A DNA stretch of 6,378 nt from a candidate division Zixibacteria bacterium SM23_81 (GCA_001304015.1 LJUY01000087.1:1-6378), one strand, 5' to 3'. Shown: positions 3 to 6,378, counted from the stretch's first letter. Notes: generated by a model from the sequence alone, not told the origin. Program-made: numbers and translations.

Positions 3-18
3 ATTGCGTATATGCAAT
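3..18. promoter_or_regulatory. Palindrome 1, putative activator-binding site
   Basis: ATTGC and GCAAT arms separated by six bases (8-13) form an inverted repeat; the inner TATA also pairs, leaving one mismatched pair (8/13). The same arms and spacing recur at 33-48, exactly 30 bp away, about three helical turns. Its centre lies about 162 bp upstream of the predicted sigma-54 transcription start, a usual distance for an enhancer-binding protein site. It sits at the window edge, so further copies may lie upstream. The repeat is seen directly; activator binding is inferred. Confidence 0.55.
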
Positions 19-145: not shown

Positions 146-161
146 TTGGCATGCTCCTTGC
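146..161 (+). promoter_or_regulatory. Sigma-54 (-24/-12) promoter
   Basis: TTGGCATGCTCCTTGC matches the consensus TGGCAC-N5-TTGC with a single C-to-T change. The invariant GG (148-149) and GC (160-161) are separated by exactly 10 bases, as RpoN requires. The predicted start of transcription is near 172-173, giving a leader of only about 12 nt before the ATG at 185, with the Shine-Dalgarno at the extreme 5' end. Sigma-54 promoters need an enhancer-binding protein; the palindromes at 3-18 and 33-48 are candidate sites. The activator gene is not in the window. Confidence 0.8.
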
Positions 162-184: not shown

Positions 185-574
185 ATGACCATAGCGGTGC
201 CCCTTTTCGGATTACGAGTGTCGCCTCGCTTCGACTGTGCGCCGGACATGATGCTGGTCACTGTGGATGGAGGAGAGATCACCAGCCGGCAAAGATTCTC
301 CATGGGACAAATCAATTCTCTGGCCCGGATCAATTGGATCTGCCAGAGAGGCGTCGATGTGGTCGTCTGCGGAGGCATCACCCGTTTTTCCATGAGGTCC
401 TTGACGAATAGGGGACTGCAAGTGTTTCCTTGGGTGACGGGCGATGCCGAGGAAATCATCGAGATGTTCTTGAGCGGGCGGCTGCGCTCCGGTTTGGTCG
501 TCGAGGCGGGGAAGAGACAGCGTCGATGGCGCTGCCGTGGGAGACGAGGGAACGGACCATGGGTCATGGATTGA
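185..574 (+). CDS. NifX/NifB-C-type metal-cluster protein (dinitrogenase Fe-Mo cofactor family)
   Basis: 129 aa, matching the small ribonuclease-H-like fold family of NifX, NafY, the NifB C-terminus and ORP (PF02579), which bind or carry metal-sulfur clusters. It opens with MTIAVPLFGLRVSPRFDCAP, the family's first strand and loop (V-S-P-R-F-D replaces the V-x-x-R-F-G of the two paralogues downstream). VVVCGGITRF at about residues 57-66 occupies the position of GxCGPNAF in those paralogues, so the Cys-Gly is kept while the rest of the loop differs. The last 20 residues are Arg-rich. The ATG at 185 is chosen over upstream TTG 146 because it follows TGGAGG at 173-178 and begins exactly at the domain; the upstream extension would lie inside the promoter. 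It is the first gene after the sigma-54 promoter. Its cluster is unknown; a role in carrying a cofactor or sensing it is inferred. Confidence 0.9.
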   Translation: MTIAVPLFGLRVSPRFDCAPDMMLVTVDGGEITSRQRFSMGQINSLARINWICQRGVDVVVCGGITRFSMRSLTNRGLQVFPWVTGDAEEIIEMFLSGRLRSGLVVEAGKRQRRWRCRGRRGNGPWVMD

Positions 575-616
575 TATTCGTCGCAGGCGGCTACGAACTG
601 AAAGGAGGTGTCAAAA

Positions 617-979
617 ATGCCAGGATTCGACGGAACCGGTCCTTTGGGCTACGGTCCTAGAACCGGCGGAGGCTTCGGCTTTTGCCCCCCCGGGATGGGG
701 CCAGCCTCTGGCCCATTGGGTTTTCTCCGTGGTGCAGGTCGAGGCGGTCTTCCATGGGGTGGTGGTAGAGGACGCGCCTGGGGTGGGGGGAGAGGTTGGG
801 CCTGGAGAGCCGCTTATGGAGGATTTGTACCCCCATACTGGGGAGCTCCTTACCCTCCGGCATGGACCCAGGAGCAGGAGCTTGATTCCCTGAAGGCCCA
901 GGCGACCGCCGTGGAGGAGGAGCTGGAGGCCATTCGCCGGAGAATCGGCGAACTGGAGGCAGAGGGCAAGAAGGATTGA
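617..979 (+). CDS. DUF5320-type Gly-rich protein with C-terminal coiled coil
   Basis: 120 aa. The N-terminus reads MPGFDGTGPLGYGPRTGGGF and is followed by Cys23, the signature MPxxDGTGPxGxGPxTGxxxGxC of a small-protein family of unknown function found in anaerobes and archaea. Residues 24-80 are low-complexity, rich in Gly, Arg, Trp, Pro and Tyr. Residues 84-116 (TQEQELDSLKAQ through RRIGELEAEG) form a charged amphipathic helix that should be a coiled coil. It has a perfect Shine-Dalgarno (AAAGGAGGTG, 601-610) and ATG at 617; GTG 608 would overlap that site and is rejected. The same helix motif ends the proteins at 3544-3912 and 4209-4868. I do not know the function; partnering with a NifX-like protein through the helix is inferred. 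Confidence 0.88.
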   Translation: MPGFDGTGPLGYGPRTGGGFGFCPPGMGPASGPLGFLRGAGRGGLPWGGGRGRAWGGGRGWAWRAAYGGFVPPYWGAPYPPAWTQEQELDSLKAQATAVEEELEAIRRRIGELEAEGKKD

Positions 980-992
980 TCCAGCAAGAAGT

Positions 993-1019
993 GGGGGTAG
1001 AAGATCTTTTTCCACCCCC
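993..1019 (+). other. Intercistronic hairpin
   Basis: The arms at 993-1004 and 1008-1019 pair as GGGGGT with ACCCCC, then one A/C mismatch, then five pairs including one G-U, closing a 3-nt loop (1005-1007). No T-run follows (CTCTCAAGGGAG comes next), so it is not a standard intrinsic terminator. It ends four bases before the Shine-Dalgarno of the next gene (1024-1030). It may stabilise or set a processing boundary in the operon mRNA; the role is inferred. Confidence 0.55.
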
Positions 1020-1035
1020 TCTCAAGGGAGTTGCT

Positions 1036-1398
1036 ATGAAAGTTGCCATTACATCCACCGGACCGACTTTGAAGGCAGAGGTCGACCAGAGGTTCGGTCG
1101 GGCGAGGCTCTTTCTCATCGTCGACACAGAGACGGAAAGCGTCAAGGTAGTCGATAATGAGCAGAACCTCAACGTCTCTCAGGGGGCGGGCATTCAAGCG
1201 GCCGAGACGGTGGTCAATGAGGGAGCGGAAGTTCTCATCACCGGGCATTGTGGTCCCAATGCCTTTCGGACTTTGCAAGCTGCGGGCGTAAGGATCATCG
1301 CAGGCGCCCAGGGCACCGTTGGCCAGATGGTGGAGAAGTTCAAGAGGGGAGAGTTGGAGTTCGTTCAGGGAGCGGATGTTCCCGGTCACTGGAGCTAG
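1036..1398 (+). CDS. NifX/ORP-like metal-cluster protein (dinitrogenase Fe-Mo cofactor family)
   Basis: 120 aa, close to the length of orange protein (ORP) of Desulfovibrio. It begins MKVAITSTGPTLKAEVDQRF, has GAGIQAAETV at 50-59 and the family loop GHCGPNAF at 70-77, whose Cys72 is a plausible metal or thiol site. VEKFKRGEL follows near 99-107 in the last helix. It is clearly paralogous to residues 1-106 of the fusion at 4209-4868. ATG 1036 follows AAGGGAG (1024-1030); the in-frame upstream start near 976 would cross the hairpin and is not preceded by a suitable site. The DUF89 gene starts only four bases after its stop, so the two are co-transcribed. Metal identity (Mo/Cu as in ORP, or another) cannot be told from sequence. 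Confidence 0.92.
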   Translation: MKVAITSTGPTLKAEVDQRFGRARLFLIVDTETESVKVVDNEQNLNVSQGAGIQAAETVVNEGAEVLITGHCGPNAFRTLQAAGVRIIAGAQGTVGQMVEKFKRGELEFVQGADVPGHWS

Positions 1399-1402
1399 AA
1401 CG

Positions 1403-2269
1403 GTGAAAACCTATCTGGAGTGCATTCCCTGTTTTTTGCGACAGGCCCTGGAAGCCAGCCGGATGGCCACCCATGATGATGGGGTACAAGCCAAAATTAT
1501 ACGGCGAGTTTTGCGCGAAACCGCGAACTTCTCCTTCAGCCTCAGCCCGCCGCACATGGGACAAAAAATTCACAGAATAGTTCGGGAAGAAACCGGCGAC
1601 CCAGATCCTTATCGGGCTGAGAAGCTTCGCTACAACATGCTGTATGCCCAGATCTATCCACAGGCGAAAAAGATGGTGGCCCGTTCTGAAAATCCAAGAG
1701 ATTCAGCCCTCAAGCTGGCTGTTGCCAGCAATGTCCTTGATTTCGGGCCACCAGGTTTCAACTTGGGGTCTAAGATAGGGTCCATTCTAGAATCAGCCCT
1801 TTCGGAGGAGTTGGCCATAGATGACCGGGCGAGTTTTTGGAGGACTATGGAGAAAGCTGAGGAAATTCTCTACTTAGGGGACAACACCGGAGAGGTCTTC
1901 TTCGATCGGCTTTTGCTGGAGCATTTGCCCGTGGAGAAGGTGACCTTTGTGGTCCGAGGGGGTCCGGCCATCAACGACATCACCATGGGAGATTTGGATG
2001 ACACCGGTTTGAATGGCTTTGTCTCAGTGGTCGACAACGGCTCGGATGCGCCGGGGACCATCCTGGAGGATTGCTCGCCAGAATTTCGCCAGCGGTTTGA
2101 AGCGGCCGACCTGATCATTTCCAAGGGGCAGGGCAATTACGAGACCCTGAGCGGCATCGATAAACACATTTTCTACCTGCTGAAGGCCAAATGTCCGGTT
2201 CTGGCTAGGGATCTCGATGTCGCCGAGGGAAGTTTGGTGGTAAAGGAGGTGCTGCCGAAGGCAGTCTGA
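1403..2269 (+). CDS. DUF89/ARMT1-like metal-dependent phosphatase family protein
   Basis: 288 aa, starting VKTYLECIPCFLRQALEASR, the usual start of prokaryotic DUF89 (PF01937) proteins. Conserved blocks are GDNTGEVFFD (159-168, with the metal-site Asp-Asn), GGPAINDIT (186-194), DNGSDAPGT (211-219), SKGQGNYETL (240-249) and CPVLARDLDV (264-273). The family includes divalent-metal-dependent phosphatases proposed to clear damaged phosphometabolites; the substrate of this subgroup is unknown. Cys7 and Cys10 (CIPC) are typical of the subgroup. I chose GTG 1403, with GGAG at 1391-1394, since the family starts exactly there; ATG 1319 or 1376 would overlap the upstream gene and add unrelated residues. 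Its place between a NifX-like gene and an Fe-S scaffold gene suggests a job tied to metal-cluster or pterin metabolism, which is inference. Confidence 0.9.
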   Translation: MKTYLECIPCFLRQALEASRMATHDDGVQAKIIRRVLRETANFSFSLSPPHMGQKIHRIVREETGDPDPYRAEKLRYNMLYAQIYPQAKKMVARSENPRDSALKLAVASNVLDFGPPGFNLGSKIGSILESALSEELAIDDRASFWRTMEKAEEILYLGDNTGEVFFDRLLLEHLPVEKVTFVVRGGPAINDITMGDLDDTGLNGFVSVVDNGSDAPGTILEDCSPEFRQRFEAADLIISKGQGNYETLSGIDKHIFYLLKAKCPVLARDLDVAEGSLVVKEVLPKAV

Positions 2270-2315
2270 CGGAAGCGATAAGTTGCATAGCCACAAAGAC
2301 CGGAGAGGCGGACGG

Positions 2316-2765
2316 ATGGAAAAACTTTTTGACCAATGGGCTCAGGAGCTTCAAGAGCTTATCTTGGAACAAGATCGCAAGATTTTTTCTCCACAGGTGA
2401 TCGACAATTATCTCAAACCGAAGAACCTGAAAGAGGTTTCCAATCCTGATGGGAAGGGCATCGTCACCGGACCGTGCGGGGATACCATGTATATTGGGTT
2501 TAAAGCCAACCAGGATCGTATCGTCGAGATTGGATTTCTCACCGATGGGTGCGGGCCGACGGTGGCCTGTGGCAGCATGCTCACGCAATTAGTTGAAGGC
2601 CGAACCCTGACAGAAGCGGCCGCTATCGCACAGGAGGATCTGCTGAGAACATTGGGCGGATTGCCGGAATCGCACCTGCACTGTGCGAAATTGGCCGTTG
2701 ACACGTTGCTCCGGGCTTTGAAGGATTGCCAAGACAGAGGAGGTGAGCCAGATGCCCAGAGGTGA
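2316..2765 (+). CDS. NifU/IscU-like Fe-S cluster assembly scaffold
   Basis: 149 aa, a single NifU N-terminal-type scaffold domain. The three ligand cysteines of IscU/NifU are present: Cys54 in GPCGDTM (followed by the conserved Asp56), Cys79 in DGCGPTVACGS and Cys123 in HLHCAKLA (preceded by His122). Cys85 is an extra cysteine. In IscU these residues build a transient [2Fe-2S] or [4Fe-4S] cluster for handing on. No NifU C-terminal domain and no cysteine desulfurase are seen here. ATG 2316 with GGAGAGG (2302-2308) is preferred over TTG 2283. Its last 14 bases overlap the next gene, implying translational coupling. The context suggests that it supplies Fe-S clusters to the ferredoxin-ATPase or to the NifX-like proteins; that is inference. 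Confidence 0.92.
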   Translation: MEKLFDQWAQELQELILEQDRKIFSPQVIDNYLKPKNLKEVSNPDGKGIVTGPCGDTMYIGFKANQDRIVEIGFLTDGCGPTVACGSMLTQLVEGRTLTEAAAIAQEDLLRTLGGLPESHLHCAKLAVDTLLRALKDCQDRGGEPDAQR

Positions 2766-2970
2766 TGGAACAGGCCCTGCGGGAAAAGGTCCAGGAACCG
2801 GCAGGGGCATGGGTCGGGGAGGTGGAGGTAGAATGGGAGGTTTCGGCCTGGGCCTCGGCGGCCACTGCGTCTGCCCCAGCTGTGGCAAGACAGTGCCGCA
2901 TAAAAGAGGAGTGCCCTGTATGAACGTGACCTGTCCAAGCTGCGGGATGCCCATGACCCGGGCCAGATGA
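2752..2970 (+). CDS. Small zinc-ribbon protein with DUF5320-type N-terminus
   Basis: 72 aa. It starts MPRGDGTGPAGKGPGTGRGM, the DUF5320-type signature, followed by a Gly-Arg-Met linker (20-37). The C-terminal half has six cysteines (39, 41, 44, 56, 61, 64): CPSCGKTVPHKRGVPC and then CPSCGMPM, a two-knuckle zinc-ribbon or rubredoxin-like metal site. ATG 2752 lies inside the end of the scaffold gene and follows AGAGGAGGTG (2736-2745); GTG 2743 would lie within that ribosome binding site. The coiled-coil tail of the sister proteins is absent and is replaced by the metal knuckles. Bound metal (Zn or Fe) and function are unknown. Coupled translation with the scaffold suggests a shared process. Confidence 0.85.
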   Translation: MPRGDGTGPAGKGPGTGRGMGRGGGGRMGGFGLGLGGHCVCPSCGKTVPHKRGVPCMNVTCPSCGMPMTRAR

Positions 2971-3028
2971 GGCTGGACAAGGACAACGGCGTTCAGGCCG
3001 CATAGACCACAGAGAGAGGTGATTGACT

Positions 3029-3505
3029 ATGCCGCGATTTGATGGGACAGGACCTTCCGGTGAAGGGCCTATGACCGGTCGTGGTTTGGGTTACTGCATT
3101 TTGAAGAATCCAGAGAAAAAAGAGGAGGGCACCGACGTTCGGGGCTATGCCGGACTTAGAGGTGTGCCGCTTAGCGATTCTCACGGAGATCTGCACACGG
3201 ACAGAAAGGAGGCGATCCTGATGCCTCGAGGAGACGGAACGGGTCCCATGGGGTTGGGGCCGATGACGGGAAGGGCAGCCGGTTACTGTGCCGGTTACCC
3301 CCTCCCTGGTTTTATGAACCTATATCGGGGGCGTGCGGGAGTTCCGCTCGGACCAACGGGATATCCTGGGACATATCCCTATGGTGGGGGACACTTCTAC
3401 GGACGCGGTTTTCCGGCACGGTACTTTGGACCGGGCCTAGGACGTGGCTGGGGCCGGGGCAGAGGTCGGGGACGTGGACGAGGATGGTTTGGGTGGGGCT
3501 GGTAA
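3029..3505 (+). CDS. Double-signature DUF5320-type protein (apparent tandem fusion)
   Basis: 158 aa reading frame holding two complete family N-termini. Residues 1-23 are MPRFDGTGPSGEGPMTGRGL plus GYC; residues 65-87 repeat it as MPRGDGTGPMGLGPMTGRAA plus GYC. Between them, residues 24-64 are hydrophilic (ILKNPEKKEEG, RGYAGLRGVPL). The C-terminus (98-158) is Gly/Arg/Tyr/Trp-rich, ends in an RG repeat and WFGWGW, and lacks the coiled coil seen in the neighbours. ATG 3029 follows GAGAGGTGA (3014-3022). A perfect Shine-Dalgarno (AAAGGAGG, 3206-3213) stands before the internal ATG 3221, so a separate shorter product is likely (next entry). It looks like two adjacent genes that lost the stop codon between them. 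Function unknown. Confidence 0.75.
   Translation: MPRFDGTGPSGEGPMTGRGLGYCILKNPEKKEEGTDVRGYAGLRGVPLSDSHGDLHTDRKEAILMPRGDGTGPMGLGPMTGRAAGYCAGYPLPGFMNLYRGRAGVPLGPTGYPGTYPYGGGHFYGRGFPARYFGPGLGRGWGRGRGRGRGRGWFGWGW
3221..3295 (+). repeat. 75-bp direct repeat, copy 1
   Basis: Starts at the internal ATG and runs through the codons of the MPRGDGTGP...GYCAG signature. It matches 3544-3618 at 73 of 75 bases; the only differences are two adjacent bases (GT versus AA, 3253-3254). Silent positions are also identical, whereas the signatures at 617, 2752 and 3029 use different codons. This points to a recent duplication or gene conversion. The shared AAAGGAGG lies upstream of both copies. Confidence 0.9.
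3221..3505 (+). CDS. Internal-start DUF5320-type protein nested in the 3029-3505 frame
   Basis: Possible independent product of 94 aa, initiated at ATG 3221. AAAGGAGG at 3206-3213 with 7-nt spacing is as strong as the best site in the window, and translation from here gives a normal family protein beginning with the signature at residue 1. Its first 75 bases match those of the next gene at 73 positions. It is in frame with the longer ORF, so both a 158-aa and a 94-aa form could be made. The sequence alone cannot settle which dominates. Confidence 0.6.
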   Translation: MPRGDGTGPMGLGPMTGRAAGYCAGYPLPGFMNLYRGRAGVPLGPTGYPGTYPYGGGHFYGRGFPARYFGPGLGRGWGRGRGRGRGRGWFGWGW

Positions 3506-3543
3506 GTTCTTTTTAACACCTTGCTGCAAAGGAGGATGTGAAG

Positions 3544-3618
3544 ATGCCTCGAGGAGACGGAACGGGTCCCATGGGAATGGGGCCGATGACGGGAAGGGCA
3601 GCCGGTTACTGTGCCGGT
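3544..3618 (+). repeat. 75-bp direct repeat, copy 2
   Basis: Second copy of the repeat at 3221-3295, 323 bp downstream, opening the next DUF5320-type gene. Identity stops sharply after the CAG codons, where the two proteins diverge (YPLPGF versus NDMPGY), although the protein motif PGxMN remains similar. Confidence 0.9.
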
Positions 3619-3912
3619 AACGATATGCCAGGATATATGAATCCAATTCCTGGGCGAGGTTTCTGGGGTCGAGGCGGCTGGGGTCGAGGCTGGCGCCGTG
3701 GTCTCTACGCCGCCGGCTTTCCTGGTTGGGCACCTTACGGAACAGGTATGTTCCCATACCAGGCATTTGGCGGGCCTTATGCCCCGCAGCCGACCCCTGA
3801 GCAGGAGCTGGAGGCACTGAAGGGGCAGGCCAAGTATTTCCAGGATGCTCTCCAGGATATCAACAAGCGGATCCAGGAGTTGGAAGCAGCCGGTCAAGAG
3901 GAGAAAAAGTAA
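3544..3912 (+). CDS. DUF5320-type Gly-rich protein with C-terminal coiled coil
   Basis: 122 aa. It starts MPRGDGTGPMGMGPMTGRAA then GYCAG, with Cys23 as the only cysteine. Residues 36-82 are rich in Gly, Trp, Arg, Tyr and Phe (GRGFWGRGGWGRGW). Residues 84-117 (TPEQELEALKGQAK through NKRIQELEAAG) form a heptad-like charged helix, the same tail as in the proteins at 617-979 and 4209-4868. ATG 3544 lies eight bases after AAAGGAGG (3528-3535); GTG 3538, two bases after that site, is too close. It is the fullest version of the family in this window: signature, aromatic-Gly linker, coiled coil. Function unknown; association with NifX-like partners through the helix is inferred. Confidence 0.88.
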   Translation: MPRGDGTGPMGMGPMTGRAAGYCAGNDMPGYMNPIPGRGFWGRGGWGRGWRRGLYAAGFPGWAPYGTGMFPYQAFGGPYAPQPTPEQELEALKGQAKYFQDALQDINKRIQELEAAGQEEKK

Positions 3913-3918
3913 AGGGAT

Positions 3919-3959
3919 TGGGTTCTCAGGAGGATGACGGCCATCCTTCTGAGAATCCG
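3919..3959 (+). other. Long intercistronic hairpin
   Basis: The arms 3919-3936 and 3942-3959 pair along 18 positions without bulge or mismatch (three G-U pairs, one of them terminal) around a 5-nt loop (ACGGC, 3937-3941). It starts seven bases after the stop of the DUF5320 gene and ends 12 bases before the Shine-Dalgarno of the FmdB-like gene. No T-run follows (CAATTTCG), so a standard terminator is unlikely. It could protect the upstream mRNA 3' end, mark a cleavage site or attenuate downstream expression; the role is inferred. Confidence 0.65.
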
Positions 3960-3983
3960 CAATTTCGTATCGAGGTGAGAACT

Positions 3984-4190
3984 GTGCCCATCTACGAGTA
4001 CCGATGTGAGAAGTGCCATCACATAATGGAATTTCTGGAGAGTTACGACGGCGCTGCCAAAGAGCACCGTTGCCAGAAGTGCGGAGGCAAGGATATGCGA
4101 AGGCTCCTGTCAGTTCCGAACGTCAGAGTAACTGACGGCTCGCCGTCGTCTGGGGGTTCCTGCCCGACAGGAACGTGCCCGATCACATGA
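3984..4190 (+). CDS. FmdB-family zinc-ribbon protein
   Basis: 68 aa, starting MPIYEYRCEKCHHIMEFLES, the hallmark of the FmdB/CxxC zinc-ribbon family (PF09723). Two Cys pairs, C8-x2-C11 and C30-x2-C33, make the metal knuckles. After the RLLSVPNVRV strand comes a short Ser/Gly tail with two more cysteines (Cys60, Cys65; SCPTGTCPIT). GTG 3984 is chosen because the family starts MPIYEY and GAGGTGA (3972-3978) precedes it; the upstream start at 3918 would put the hairpin inside the gene. FmdB was named as a putative regulator from a formamidase locus, but the role of most members is unknown. Its gene ends 18 bases before the fusion gene. Confidence 0.9.
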   Translation: MPIYEYRCEKCHHIMEFLESYDGAAKEHRCQKCGGKDMRRLLSVPNVRVTDGSPSSGGSCPTGTCPIT

Positions 4191-4208
4191 GCAGAGAAGG
4201 GATATTTT

Positions 4209-4868
4209 ATGAAAATCGCTGTGACATCCACAGGCCCCACTCTTGATGACCAGGTGGAAGCACGATTTGGCCGGTGTTCCTACTTTCTGATCATCGATCT
4301 CGACACCATGGAGTTTGAAGCTCTGGAGAACCCCAACATTGCCTTGGGGGGAGGAGCAGGAATCCAATCGGCTCAGCTGCTAGCCCAGAGGGAAGTCAAT
4401 ACAGTGTTGACGGGGAATTGCGGCCCCAATGCCTTTCAGACGTTCGGCGCTGCTGGAATTCAGGTGATCGTCGGAGTCAGCGGACCCGTCAAAGAGGCTG
4501 TGGAGAAGTTTAAATCCGGGGTGTTCTCAGCAGCCTCCGGTCCCAGCGTGGACAGCAAATTTGGCCTCTCTGGCGGCGCGGCGGGTGAGCAAGCCGCCCA
4601 GCAATCTCCCCAGCCTACCATGCTCGGTCCCGGTATGGGGAGTGGTATGGGGCGAGGCATGGGCATGGGAAGGGGTATGGGAAGGGGTATGGGAAGGGGT
4701 ATGGGAAGAGGCATGGGAAGGGGCATGGCCGGGGTTCCTATGACAGGTCCTCCTCCCCAGATGACCAGGGAGCAGGAAGTGGCCATGCTGAAGCAACAGG
4801 CCCAGGCCATGATGGAACAGCTCGAGGGGATACAGAAGCGAATTTCAGAGCTGGAGAAGGGAAAATGA
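4209..4868 (+). CDS. NifX-like domain fused to Gly-Met-Arg repeat and DUF5320-type coiled coil
   Basis: 219 aa in three parts. Residues 1-107 are a NifX/ORP-like domain (MKIAVTSTGPTLDDQVEARF, GAGIQSAQLL, GNCGPNAF at 69-76, VEKFKSGVF), close to the protein at 1036-1398. Residues 108-180 are a flexible Gly/Ala/Gln then Met-Gly-Arg-Gly repeat linker. Residues 185-217 (TREQEVAMLKQQAQ through QKRISELEKGK) are a coiled coil sharing the pattern EQExxxLKxQA...I..RIxELE with the tails of the DUF5320 proteins at 617-979 and 3544-3912. ATG 4209 follows AGAAGGGA (4195-4202). The fusion suggests that separate NifX-like and DUF5320 proteins act together. The many Met residues could bind Cu(I), but that is speculation. 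Confidence 0.88.
   Translation: MKIAVTSTGPTLDDQVEARFGRCSYFLIIDLDTMEFEALENPNIALGGGAGIQSAQLLAQREVNTVLTGNCGPNAFQTFGAAGIQVIVGVSGPVKEAVEKFKSGVFSAASGPSVDSKFGLSGGAAGEQAAQQSPQPTMLGPGMGSGMGRGMGMGRGMGRGMGRGMGRGMGRGMAGVPMTGPPPQMTREQEVAMLKQQAQAMMEQLEGIQKRISELEKGK
4632..4733 (+). repeat. 12-bp tandem repeat coding for Met-Gly-Arg-Gly units
   Basis: The core 4665-4724 is five 12-bp units of ATGGGAAGGGGT; the first three are identical and the last two differ at one or two bases. Looser units flank it from 4632 to 4733. It encodes the GMGRGMGRG linker of the fusion protein at residues 142-175. Identity at silent positions suggests recent expansion by slippage, so copy number may vary between strains. Antisense reading frames rich in HTPS and PMPL here are by-products of the repeat. 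Confidence 0.88.
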
Positions 4869-4938
4869 CCGCGCGGCAGCTTTAAAGTGTAGTCTAAGAA
4901 TAGGCTATATCAAAATTGCTGCTATTTGAGGGTTGAAG

Positions 4939-5736
4939 ATGTCTCGTTTCGGAATATTGTGTTTATGCATTATGTTGTTGGCTTTTAACGGAAATTTAGC
5001 CGGGGAGGTGGCCTCCGTGGATTCCATCACCATCACCACCGTCTACGATAACAACCCCTTTGTCGAGGGTCTGGTATCCTCCTGGGGATTTGCCTGTGTG
5101 GTGCAGGGTTTGGAGAGGACCATTCTCTTCGACACAGGGGGAGATGGAGGGGTCCTGTTGGCCAATATGGAGCAGTTAGCCCTGGATCCACAGATCGTCC
5201 AGATAGTAATCCTCTCTCACCTCCATGGCGATCACACCGGGGGGTTGGCCGATTTTCTCCAGGTCAATCCCGAGGTGACGGTGTACATGCTGGAATCCTT
5301 TGCGGAACACTTGGAAAAGGATGTCACCGAGAGGGGAGCCCAGTTGGTCACCGTAAAAGAGCCTGTGGAGATCTGCCAGGGAGTTTTTCTGACCGGAGAG
5401 ATGGGGACGGCTATCTCGGAGCAGGCCCTGGTTCTCAAAACTTCCCAGGGGCTCGTTATCATCACCGGCTGTGCCCATCCTGGCATCGTAGACATGGTCA
5501 AGAAGAGCCAGGAAATTGGCAAGTTGCCTCCTTGTTTGGTCATGGGGGGATTTCATCTTCTCGGAGCCTCTCGCCCAAAGGTGCGAGAGATATTGAGCCA
5601 GTTTCGTGAACTTGGCGTGGCCAAAGTCTCTCCCTGCCATTGTACCGGGTCGGAAGCTATTTCCATGTTCGCGGAAACCTATGGCCAGGGATATATCCAG
5701 AATGGCACAGGGCGGGTCATCACCTTGGAACGCTAG
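4939..5736 (+). CDS. Metallo-beta-lactamase fold protein, COG1237 type, with signal peptide
   Basis: 265 aa. The MBL metal motif HLHGDH (His94, His96, Asp98, His99) follows the strand IVQIVILS. Further ligands are GCAHPG (His180) and GGFHLLG (His206); the ending PCHCTGSEA and GYIQNGTGRV is typical of COG1237, often annotated as 7,8-dihydropterin-6-methyl-4-(ribofuranosyl)aminobenzene-phosphate synthase-like, though the reaction of most members is unproven. Residues 1-22 (one Arg, then ILCLCIMLLAF, then NLAG) look like a Sec signal peptide added before the usual domain start, so the protein may be periplasmic. There is no lipobox cysteine at the cleavage region. ATG 4939 follows GAGGG (4928-4932). 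A 70-bp gap precedes it, the longest in the cluster after the leader, so it may have its own promoter, but I see none clearly. Confidence 0.88.
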   Translation: MSRFGILCLCIMLLAFNGNLAGEVASVDSITITTVYDNNPFVEGLVSSWGFACVVQGLERTILFDTGGDGGVLLANMEQLALDPQIVQIVILSHLHGDHTGGLADFLQVNPEVTVYMLESFAEHLEKDVTERGAQLVTVKEPVEICQGVFLTGEMGTAISEQALVLKTSQGLVIITGCAHPGIVDMVKKSQEIGKLPPCLVMGGFHLLGASRPKVREILSQFRELGVAKVSPCHCTGSEAISMFAETYGQGYIQNGTGRVITLER

Positions 5737-5796
5737 GGCTGACGACTTCTCATGATCCGCTCACCGGCCAGACACCTGTCTTTGAGGAATCAATTC

Positions 5797-6378
5797 ATGA
5801 TCATCGCCATCGCCTCCGGAAAGGGAGGCACGGGAAAGACCACTCTGGCCACAAATCTGGCCATGAGCTTAGCCAGAGAGGATCAGGAAGTTCAGCTGCT
5901 CGATTGCGACGTGGAGGAGCCCAACTGCCATTTATTTCTCAGGCTCTCTTTGGAGGCTTCTGTGACGGTCAGCATGCCCGTTCCAGAAGTCGATCGGGGA
6001 AAATGCACCGTCTGTGGCCAGTGTGACCAGATCTGCCAGTTCAGCGCCATCGTGTGCCTCAAGGATACTGTGCTCACTTTTCCCGAGCTCTGTCACAGCT
6101 GCGGCGGGTGTGTTCTGGTTTGTCCTCAAGGAGCCATATCCGAGAAGCCCCGGGATATCGGGGTCATCGAGAAGGGGTATGCCGACGGGATTCGTTTCGT
6201 CCACGGCCGTCTTAAAATCGGTGAGGCCATGTCGCCGCCTTTGATTCGAGAGGTGAAGAAGCGTATCTGCCCCCAAGGCTACCGCATCATAGACGCCCCG
6301 CCGGGAACCTCCTGTCCGGTCATCGAGGCGACCAGAGGCAGCGATGTCTGCATCCTGGTCACCGAGCCCACCCCCTTT
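5797..6378 (+). CDS. MinD/Mrp-type P-loop ATPase with two [4Fe-4S] ferredoxin motifs (3' end outside window)
   Basis: First 194 residues; family members are about 280-290 aa, so roughly 90 are missing past the edge. It starts MIIAIASGKGGTGKTT with the deviant Walker A (residues 8-16) of the MinD/ParA/Mrp group. DCDVEEPN (36-43) is the switch I region and YRIIDAPPGTSCPV (162-175) the Walker B/switch II region. Inserted between them is a bacterial 2[4Fe-4S] ferredoxin domain: Cys70, 73, 76, 80 (the last followed by Gln rather than Pro) and Cys99, 102, 105, 109 followed by Pro. ATPases of this form accompany ORP in Desulfovibrio, usually as a tandem pair, so a second copy may follow. ATG 5797 follows TGAGGA (5783-5788); ATG 5752 is in frame but gives 15 unmatched residues. 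Likely roles are ATP-driven cluster transfer or electron delivery, by inference. Confidence 0.93.
   Translation, partial: MIIAIASGKGGTGKTTLATNLAMSLAREDQEVQLLDCDVEEPNCHLFLRLSLEASVTVSMPVPEVDRGKCTVCGQCDQICQFSAIVCLKDTVLTFPELCHSCGGCVLVCPQGAISEKPRDIGVIEKGYADGIRFVHGRLKIGEAMSPPLIREVKKRICPQGYRIIDAPPGTSCPVIEATRGSDVCILVTEPTPF

What the first reader, a model, noticed from the sequence alone, without database searches (positions are those of the whole stretch)
185..6378. Expanded ORP-like metal-cluster operon combining NifX paralogues, Fe-S scaffold, DUF89, FmdB, MBL and MinD-ferredoxin ATPase
Three NifX-family proteins, a NifU-like scaffold, two zinc-ribbon proteins, a ferredoxin ATPase and several DUF5320 proteins in one strand with gaps mostly under 60 bp suggest a dedicated metal-sulfur cofactor pathway. 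No nifHDK, nifB or nifEN is present, so it is not a nitrogenase locus as far as the window shows. ORP loci provide precedent for NifX-like plus MinD-ferredoxin genes under sigma-54, but the scaffold, DUF89, MBL and DUF5320 components would make this a wider system whose product is unknown.
Basis: partly seen in the sequence, partly recalled or inferred. Interest (0 to 1): 0.72.

Follow-up and report, generated by a model that had tools for sequence, protein, structure and literature searches.

The report
Expanded ORP-type metal-sulfide cluster operon
This stretch holds most of a gene set, found side by side in many oxygen-avoiding bacteria and archaea, that most likely collects iron and sulfide, holds them on glycine-and-arginine-rich proteins and builds metal clusters from them; several of its parts have never been studied, and it offers a first testable role for the unknown protein family DUF5320.

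Summary
All named genes are there, on one strand, behind a sigma-54 promoter and two palindromic activator sites. The window is one whole 6378-bp contig; a second, 78%-identical copy on contig C87 of the same assembly shows what lies beyond: the sigma-54 activator upstream; a second MinD-ferredoxin ATPase, MrpORP, a CDF transporter fused to NifX and a DUF4213/DUF364 protein downstream. The set recurs, same strand, across many bacterial and archaeal phyla; DUF5320 and the MinD-ferredoxin gene co-occur far above chance (41 shared of 45 and 46 carriers in 145 genomes). The 'no co-occurrence' refutation fails and the ORP comparison holds: NifX2 groups with D. gigas ORP, the NifX3 model fits ORP at 0.9 A, MrpORP passes its curated cut-off. 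New here: NifX3 carries a disordered Gly/Arg/Met tail plus a coiled coil shared with DUF5320, and DUF5320 proteins match the composition of the thioferrate-binding IssA tail. Best reading: an ORP-type, anaerobe-wide system that binds metal sulfide (probably iron sulfide) on tailed NifX and DUF5320 proteins and passes clusters on through a NifU scaffold and three P-loop ATPases. The metal, product and storage step are inferred.

The parts
3..18 (.). Putative activator (EBP) site 1, ATTGC-N6-GCAAT palindrome
   Evidence: Two exact matches in the window, 0.01 expected; similar TTGC...GCAA repeats lie between the EBP gene and the sigma-54 promoter in C87, L058, L081 and L117
33..48 (.). Putative activator (EBP) site 2, ATTGCA-TTAT-TGCAAT palindrome
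146..161 (+). Sigma-54 promoter, TTGGCATGCTCCTTGC (-24/-12)
   Evidence: Exact consensus, 0.09 expected by chance even with one mismatch allowed; a matching site is also found in C87, L058 and L081, and one can be read by eye in L117
185..574 (+). NifX1: NifX-domain protein, promoter-proximal class, with a short R/W/G-rich cationic C-terminus
   Evidence: PF02579 33 bits; own clade with L058, L081, L113 and L117 (100/100); tails
617..979 (+). DUF5320 protein a
   Evidence: PF17253 1.2e-21
1036..1398 (+). NifX2: ORP-like NifX protein
   Evidence: PF02579 7e-25; in a fork with D. gigas ORP 2WFB (96/93)
1403..2269 (+). DUF89/ARMT1-like metal-dependent phosphatase (GTG start)
   Evidence: PF01937 7.7e-65; closest solved relatives 2g8l and 2ffj
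2316..2765 (+). NifU/IscU-type Fe-S scaffold with all three cysteines (C54, C79, C123) and the Asp (D56)
   Evidence: PF01592 4e-25; invariant residues; best solved relative 4eb5 NifU
2752..2970 (+). DUF5320z: DUF5320 N-terminal motif plus a 6-Cys ribbon (CxCPSCG ... PCxxxxCPSCG)
   Evidence: PF17253 24.6 bits, just under cut-off; found in 38 of 80 related loci; lowest dN/dS, 0.05
3029..3505 (+). Double DUF5320 protein b/c; the internal ATG at 3221 has its own Shine-Dalgarno (AAAGGAGG)
   Evidence: PF17253 5.9e-21, two stretches; internal SD also in C87 and, in altered form, in L052
3544..3912 (+). DUF5320 protein d: disordered Gly/Arg/aromatic body with one Cys, C-terminal helix
   Evidence: PF17253 4.6e-28; model helix 85-120, rest about pLDDT 45-50
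3984..4190 (+). FmdB-type zinc ribbon (GTG start)
   Evidence: TIGR02605 1.4e-15; PF09723
4209..4868 (+). NifX3: ORP-like NifX domain + disordered (GMGRGM)n tail + coiled coil shared with DUF5320
   Evidence: PF02579 and PF17253; 2WFB 1.8e-20; model fits 2WFB at 0.9 A, TM 0.91; hhalign to DUF5320 98.7%
4939..5736 (+). MBL-fold hydrolase with a hydrophobic, signal-like N-terminus
   Evidence: PF00753; closest solved relative 7dck 4.7e-59
5797..6378 (+). MinD-type P-loop ATPase with inserted ferredoxin domain (Orp3/Orp4-like), cut by the contig end
   Evidence: ncbifam MinD/ParA and ferredoxin matches; full-length copy on C87

Best explanation
It is an ORP-type metal-sulfide operon of anaerobes in an expanded form that recurs across bacterial and archaeal phyla. 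Proposed working: (1) a sigma-54 activator with a GAFTDA motif binds TTGC/GCAA palindromes and switches the operon on (sites and gene shown; binding and signal inferred). (2) NifX2 and NifX3, which have the ORP fold, bind inorganic metal sulfide (inferred from ORP). (3) NifX3's flexible Gly/Arg/Met tail and the free-standing cationic DUF5320 proteins, probably joined through their shared coiled coil, hold or wrap the anionic metal sulfide, most likely iron sulfide, much as the IssA tail is proposed to hold thioferrate (inferred from composition and architecture). (4) The NifU-type scaffold and the MinD-ferredoxin and MrpORP ATPases convert it to [4Fe-4S] or related clusters and deliver them (domains shown; activity inferred from D. 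vulgaris MrpORP). (5) DUF89, MBL, FmdB, the CDF-NifX transporter and DUF4213/DUF364 adjust metal or ligand supply (guess). In short, an anaerobic iron-sulfide holding and cluster-delivery system rather than a nitrogenase-like pathway.
For: ORP link: NifX3 best solved match is D. gigas ORP, its model superposes at 0.9 A, NifX2 groups with ORP in the tree; C87 MrpORP scores 547 against a cut-off of 450; two MinD-ferredoxin ATPases on C87; GAFTDA activator as in DVU2106 (PMC4641369); sigma-54 site and palindromes. Conserved set: DUF5320 with the MinD-ferredoxin gene in 41 genomes, of 45 and 46 carriers among 145 (p 7e-26), 35 within 10 kb; of 42 well-covered loci 33 hold NifX, 28 a tailed NifX, 27-28 each MinD-ferredoxin gene and Mrp, 27 DUF5320, nearly all on one strand. 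Storage idea: 23 NifX with tails of 45 or more residues, most of them Gly-rich and of high pI; DUF5320 bodies median pI 10.0, Gly 0.25, Arg+Lys 0.11, aromatic 0.14, usually one Cys, against the IssA tail 15/70 Gly, 7/70 cationic, 14/70 aromatic, pI 10.7, one Cys (PMC5524996); shared coiled coil. MrpORP delivers Fe-S to ORP proteins in vitro (PMC6345978). Copper exposure raises Dde_3197-3199 along with feoA and flavodoxin in O. alaskensis (PMC10533852).
Against: The tailed NifX proteins fall with ORP, not with MTH1175, the IssA-type anchor in the tree, and IssA itself could not be included. Their tails are Met-rich and nearly free of aromatics, unlike IssA. Composition can converge. D. gigas ORP binds a Mo-Cu cluster, so the metal may not be iron. 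A rise together with feoA and flavodoxin could mean iron shortage or cluster damage rather than iron excess. No direct metal data exist. DUF89 is in only 7 of 42 full loci.
Confidence: 0.5

Rival explanations
1. It assembles a heterometallic Mo-Cu(-S) cluster as reported for D. gigas ORP; the extra genes build and load that cluster, and the role is ORP-like (put forward for cell division in D. vulgaris).
For: NifX2 groups with, and NifX3 folds like, D. gigas ORP; D. vulgaris Orp8 is described as homologous to proteins with a [S2MoS2CuS2MoS2] cluster and the ORP complex as putatively involved in cell division (PMC6345978); MobB-like genes near NifU in 9 of 80 loci.
Against: The D. vulgaris MrpORP NifX domain itself carries a [3Fe-4S] cluster when isolated (PMC6345978); the NifU scaffold and ferredoxin ATPases point to Fe-S; no molybdate transporter or Moco gene was recognised in the C87 locus.
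Confidence: 0.2
2. It is a metal-stress system: NifX and DUF5320 proteins trap toxic metal (copper or others) as sulfide while NifU, Mrp and MinD proteins repair damaged Fe-S clusters; CDF-NifX and DUF4213/DUF364 export or chelate the metal.
For: Dde_3197-3199, whose numbers lie close to MrpORP Dde_3202, change by about 6-8 log2 units on copper (PMC10533852); CDF transporter fused to NifX and a 'putative heavy-metal chelation' protein on C87.
Against: CDF is found in 2 of 80 and DUF364 in 7 of 80 loci only; wide core conservation argues for a housekeeping role; no P-type ATPase or metal-resistance gene was recognised in the C87 locus.
Confidence: 0.15
3. It matures one particular, still unknown metalloenzyme.
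For: Three NifX classes, radical SAM and methyltransferase genes in many loci resemble the make-up of complex cofactor pathways.
Against: No catalytic target enzyme recurs among the clustered neighbours across loci; the core is the same in very different organisms.
Confidence: 0.12

Closest known systems
ORP (orange protein) system of Desulfovibrio vulgaris, DVU2103-DVU2109
   Same: Sigma-54 promoter with cognate GAFTDA activator, ORP-type NifX, two MinD-ferredoxin ATPases, MrpORP.
   Different: Here the activator is upstream in the same direction and not part of two divergent operons; added NifU scaffold, DUF89, MBL, FmdB, several DUF5320 units, three NifX classes including a tailed NifX, CDF-NifX.
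IssA, iron-sulfur storage protein of Pyrococcus furiosus, and its uncharacterised 'IssX' relatives
   Same: NifX domain plus disordered, glycine-rich, cationic tail; free DUF5320 proteins share the tail's Gly/Arg/aromatic make-up and single Cys.
   Different: NifX3 lies in the ORP clade, its tail is Met- not aromatic-rich and ends in a coiled coil; storage of thioferrate untested; IssA was purified without partners, whereas here partner genes are many.
NifU/IscU Fe-S scaffold systems
   Same: NifU fold with three Cys and Asp conserved.
   Different: Motif TDGCGPTxACGS; no cysteine desulfurase was recognised next to it; part of an ORP-type locus.
Nitrogenase FeMo-co biosynthesis (NifB/NifX/NafY/NifEN)
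   Same: NifX fold shared.
   Different: No NifD/K/E/N-family match in the genome.

Membership tests
ORP system | ORP-type NifX protein | tested here: met
   NifX2 with 2WFB in tree; NifX3 2WFB 1.8e-20 and 0.9 A fit
ORP system | Two MinD-type ATPases with inserted ferredoxin | tested here: met
   First at 5797-6378 (cut), both complete on C87
ORP system | MrpORP (P-loop ATPase fused to NifX) | tested here: met
   C87 copy 546.7 bits against cut-off 450 for NF041136; beyond the end of the window contig
ORP system | Sigma-54 promoter and cognate activator | tested here: met
   Site at 146-161; GAFTDA activator directly upstream on C87
ORP system | Orp5 homologue | not tested
   No Orp5 sequence at hand
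ORP system | Physical complex, bound metal cluster | not testable with these tools
   Needs protein work
IssA (thioferrate storage) | NifX domain plus disordered cationic Gly-rich tail | tested here: met
   Tail pI 10.5, Gly 0.23; tail residues mostly pLDDT about 45-50
IssA (thioferrate storage) | Falls in the IssA clade of NifX domains | tested here: not met
   In ORP clade (96/95) apart from MTH1175, taken as IssA-type anchor after PMC5524996; not filed as IssA
IssA (thioferrate storage) | Forms thioferrate particles | not testable with these tools
   Needs protein work
NifU/IscU scaffold | Fold plus three Cys and Asp | tested here: met
Nitrogenase cofactor pathway | NifD/K/E/N-family proteins in the genome | tested here: not met
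   No PF00148 match; genome 92.6% complete

The most novel reading that the evidence does not exclude
DUF5320 proteins and tailed NifX together form a bacterial and archaeal iron-sulfide storage particle (a sulfide counterpart of ferritin), with NifU, MinD-ferredoxin and MrpORP ATPases as an energy-driven release machine, widespread in anaerobes and so far overlooked.
Probability: 0.25. Interest if true: 0.85.

Novelty: new variant of a known kind. Interest (0 to 1): 0.6.

Why it matters
How strict anaerobes store iron and sulfur and build Fe-S clusters is poorly known. This links two separate stories (ORP in sulfate reducers, IssA in Pyrococcus) and a Pfam family of unknown function (DUF5320) to one gene set that recurs across phyla, with direct tests. 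In the paper library searched, DUF5320 is named in only two papers, neither about this subject by title and abstract, and no paper describing this gene set turned up.

Tried and rejected
Nitrogenase locus: rejected, no NifD/K/E/N family in the genome. Low-complexity ORFs as artefacts: rejected by dN/dS and conservation. Filing NifX3 as IssA: rejected on the tree. RNA families and tRNAs: none. Search by COG number gave no papers; the main 2011 ORP paper is not held. First greedy ORF filter undercounted families because of antisense shadow ORFs; redone on all ORFs. DUF5320 against solved structures: only weak, mostly coiled-coil, matches. Archaeal sample: DUF5320 and MinD-ferredoxin co-occur (40 of 45, p 1e-6) but are often not neighbours there.

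Full report
OBSERVATION. The window is a complete 6378-bp contig (C62) of an assembly of 3.07 Mb in 99 contigs, 92.6% complete, 4.05% contamination. Twelve reading frames run from 185 to the contig end, with gaps between a 14-bp overlap and 71 bp. A sigma-54 promoter TTGGCATGCTCCTTGC lies at 146-161, and two ATTGC-N6-GCAAT palindromes lie upstream (0.01 expected).

SECOND COPY. Contig C87 of the same assembly carries a syntenic copy, mostly 73-78% identical in DNA. Against it the genes show dN/dS of 0.05-0.26; for NifU dS was saturated. C87 supplies what the window lacks: directly upstream a sigma-54 activator with the GAFTDA motif, the variant listed for DVU2106 of D. vulgaris (PMC4641369); downstream a second MinD-ferredoxin ATPase, a methyltransferase, MrpORP (547 bits against the curated cut-off 450), a CDF transporter with a C-terminal NifX domain, a DUF4213/DUF364 'putative heavy-metal chelation' protein, an FmdB-like protein and a radical SAM protein. 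Whether C62 is a second operon of the same organism or a contig of a relative binned with it is not settled; GC contents are alike (0.56 and 0.55). No NifD/K/E/N-family protein is found in the genome.

CONSERVATION. Over a sample of 145 genomes, nearly all from different families, DUF5320 occurs in 45 and a close MinD-ferredoxin relative in 46, both together in 41 (Fisher p 7e-26; without the own phylum 5e-24), and in 35 genomes within 10 kb. In an archaeal sample 40 of 45 DUF5320 genomes carry the ATPase (p 1e-6), often not as neighbours. Anchored on the NifU-like gene, 80 named loci were fetched, from Zixiibacteriota, Chloroflexota, Aminicenantes, Nitrospira, KSB1, TA06, Stahlbacteria, Desulfobacterales and other 'delta' groups, Methanosarcinales, Syntrophoarchaeum, Thermoplasmata and others. 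Of the 42 with at least 5 kb before and 1.5 kb after the anchor, 33 have NifX, 28 a tailed NifX, 28 and 27 the two MinD-ferredoxin genes, 28 Mrp, 27 DUF5320, 24 the 6-Cys DUF5320z, 23 FmdB, 19 the radical SAM gene, 14 MBL, 7 DUF89, 7 DUF364; strand bias is strong (e.g. NifX 101 to 2). These loci are the best 80 of 421 and many are Dehalococcoidia, so the counts are not independent. Regulators alternate: a close sigma-54 activator precedes the core in four bacterial loci, DUF134 is found in 22 others, never both.

NIFX CLASSES. A tree of 111 NifX domains puts the tailed NifX proteins, NifX2 and D. gigas ORP in one clade (96/95), NifX2 in a fork with ORP (96/93), MTH1175 (called IssA-type by Vaccaro et al.) and TM1290 just outside, NifX1 in its own clade with other promoter-proximal copies (100/100), and the MrpORP domain apart (few columns, some long branches). 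NifX3's closest solved relative is ORP, and its AlphaFold model (domain pLDDT about 97) fits ORP at 0.9 A, TM 0.91.

TAILS AND DUF5320. NifX3 continues into a disordered Gly/Arg/Met-rich stretch (pLDDT mostly 45-50) and a confident helix 187-217. That helix is matched by the C-terminal helix of DUF5320 (hhalign 98.7%). DUF5320 proteins have an almost invariant start MPxxDGTGPxGxGPxTGxxxGxC, usually one Cys, a disordered Gly/Arg/aromatic body and often the same helix. Their bodies have median pI 10.0, Gly 0.25, Arg+Lys 0.11, aromatic 0.14. For the IssA tail the published numbers are 15/70 Gly, 7/70 cationic, 14/70 aromatic, pI 10.7 and the protein's only Cys (PMC5524996). NifX1 also ends in a short R/W/G-rich tail, with Cys in most copies. 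The likeness to IssA is in chemistry and layout, not in demonstrated homology.

MECHANISM. Shown: gene content, promoter anatomy, folds, conserved scaffold residues, conservation of the set. Inferred: metal-sulfide binding by NifX2/NifX3; holding of the mineral by tails and DUF5320; conversion and delivery by NifU, MinD-ferredoxin and MrpORP ATPases. Support from others: MrpORP binds Fe-S on both domains and passes clusters to the Orp3-Orp4-Orp8 complex in vitro (PMC6345978); IssA stores thioferrate and rebuilds ferredoxin (PMC5524996); two IssA homologues rise in pyrite-grown M. voltae together with FeoB (PMC8516115); in O. alaskensis Dde_3197-3199 change with feoA and flavodoxin by 6-8 log2 units on copper (PMC10533852), which I read as a link to iron or Fe-S stress.

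VERDICT. It is best filed as a new, expanded variant of the ORP system. The iron-sulfide storage role of the tails is a hypothesis that purification can settle.

Noticed in passing
window 3029-3505 (internal ATG 3221): One frame holds two DUF5320 starts; the inner ATG has its own strong Shine-Dalgarno, kept in C87 and, altered, in L052, so two products from one frame are possible.
   Followed up: partly
window 4939-5010: The MBL hydrolase begins with a hydrophobic, signal-like stretch, also in C87 and L052; it may be exported, unlike the rest of the set.
   Followed up: no
L010:7406-8683 (-), L113:8551-9882, L078:15092-16582: CDF-type cation transporter fused to a C-terminal NifX domain; closest named models MamB/MamM/FieF for the C87 copy.
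   Followed up: partly
L058, L081, L113, L117 versus 22 loci with DUF134: The regulator of the cluster alternates between a sigma-54 activator and a DUF134 DNA-binding protein.
   Followed up: partly
window 185-574 and L058, L081, L113, L117: NifX1 class ends in a short R/W/G-rich tail (Cys in most) and follows the sigma-54 activator; it could serve as a sensor or partner of the activator.
   Followed up: no
L064, L068, L077, L091, L096, L105, L111, L131 and others: MobB-like, TrmO-like and thioredoxin genes recur near NifU in some loci.
   Followed up: no
G000:C62 and G000:C87: Two copies of the operon at about 78% DNA identity in one assembly: old duplication or a relative's contig in the bin.
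   Followed up: partly
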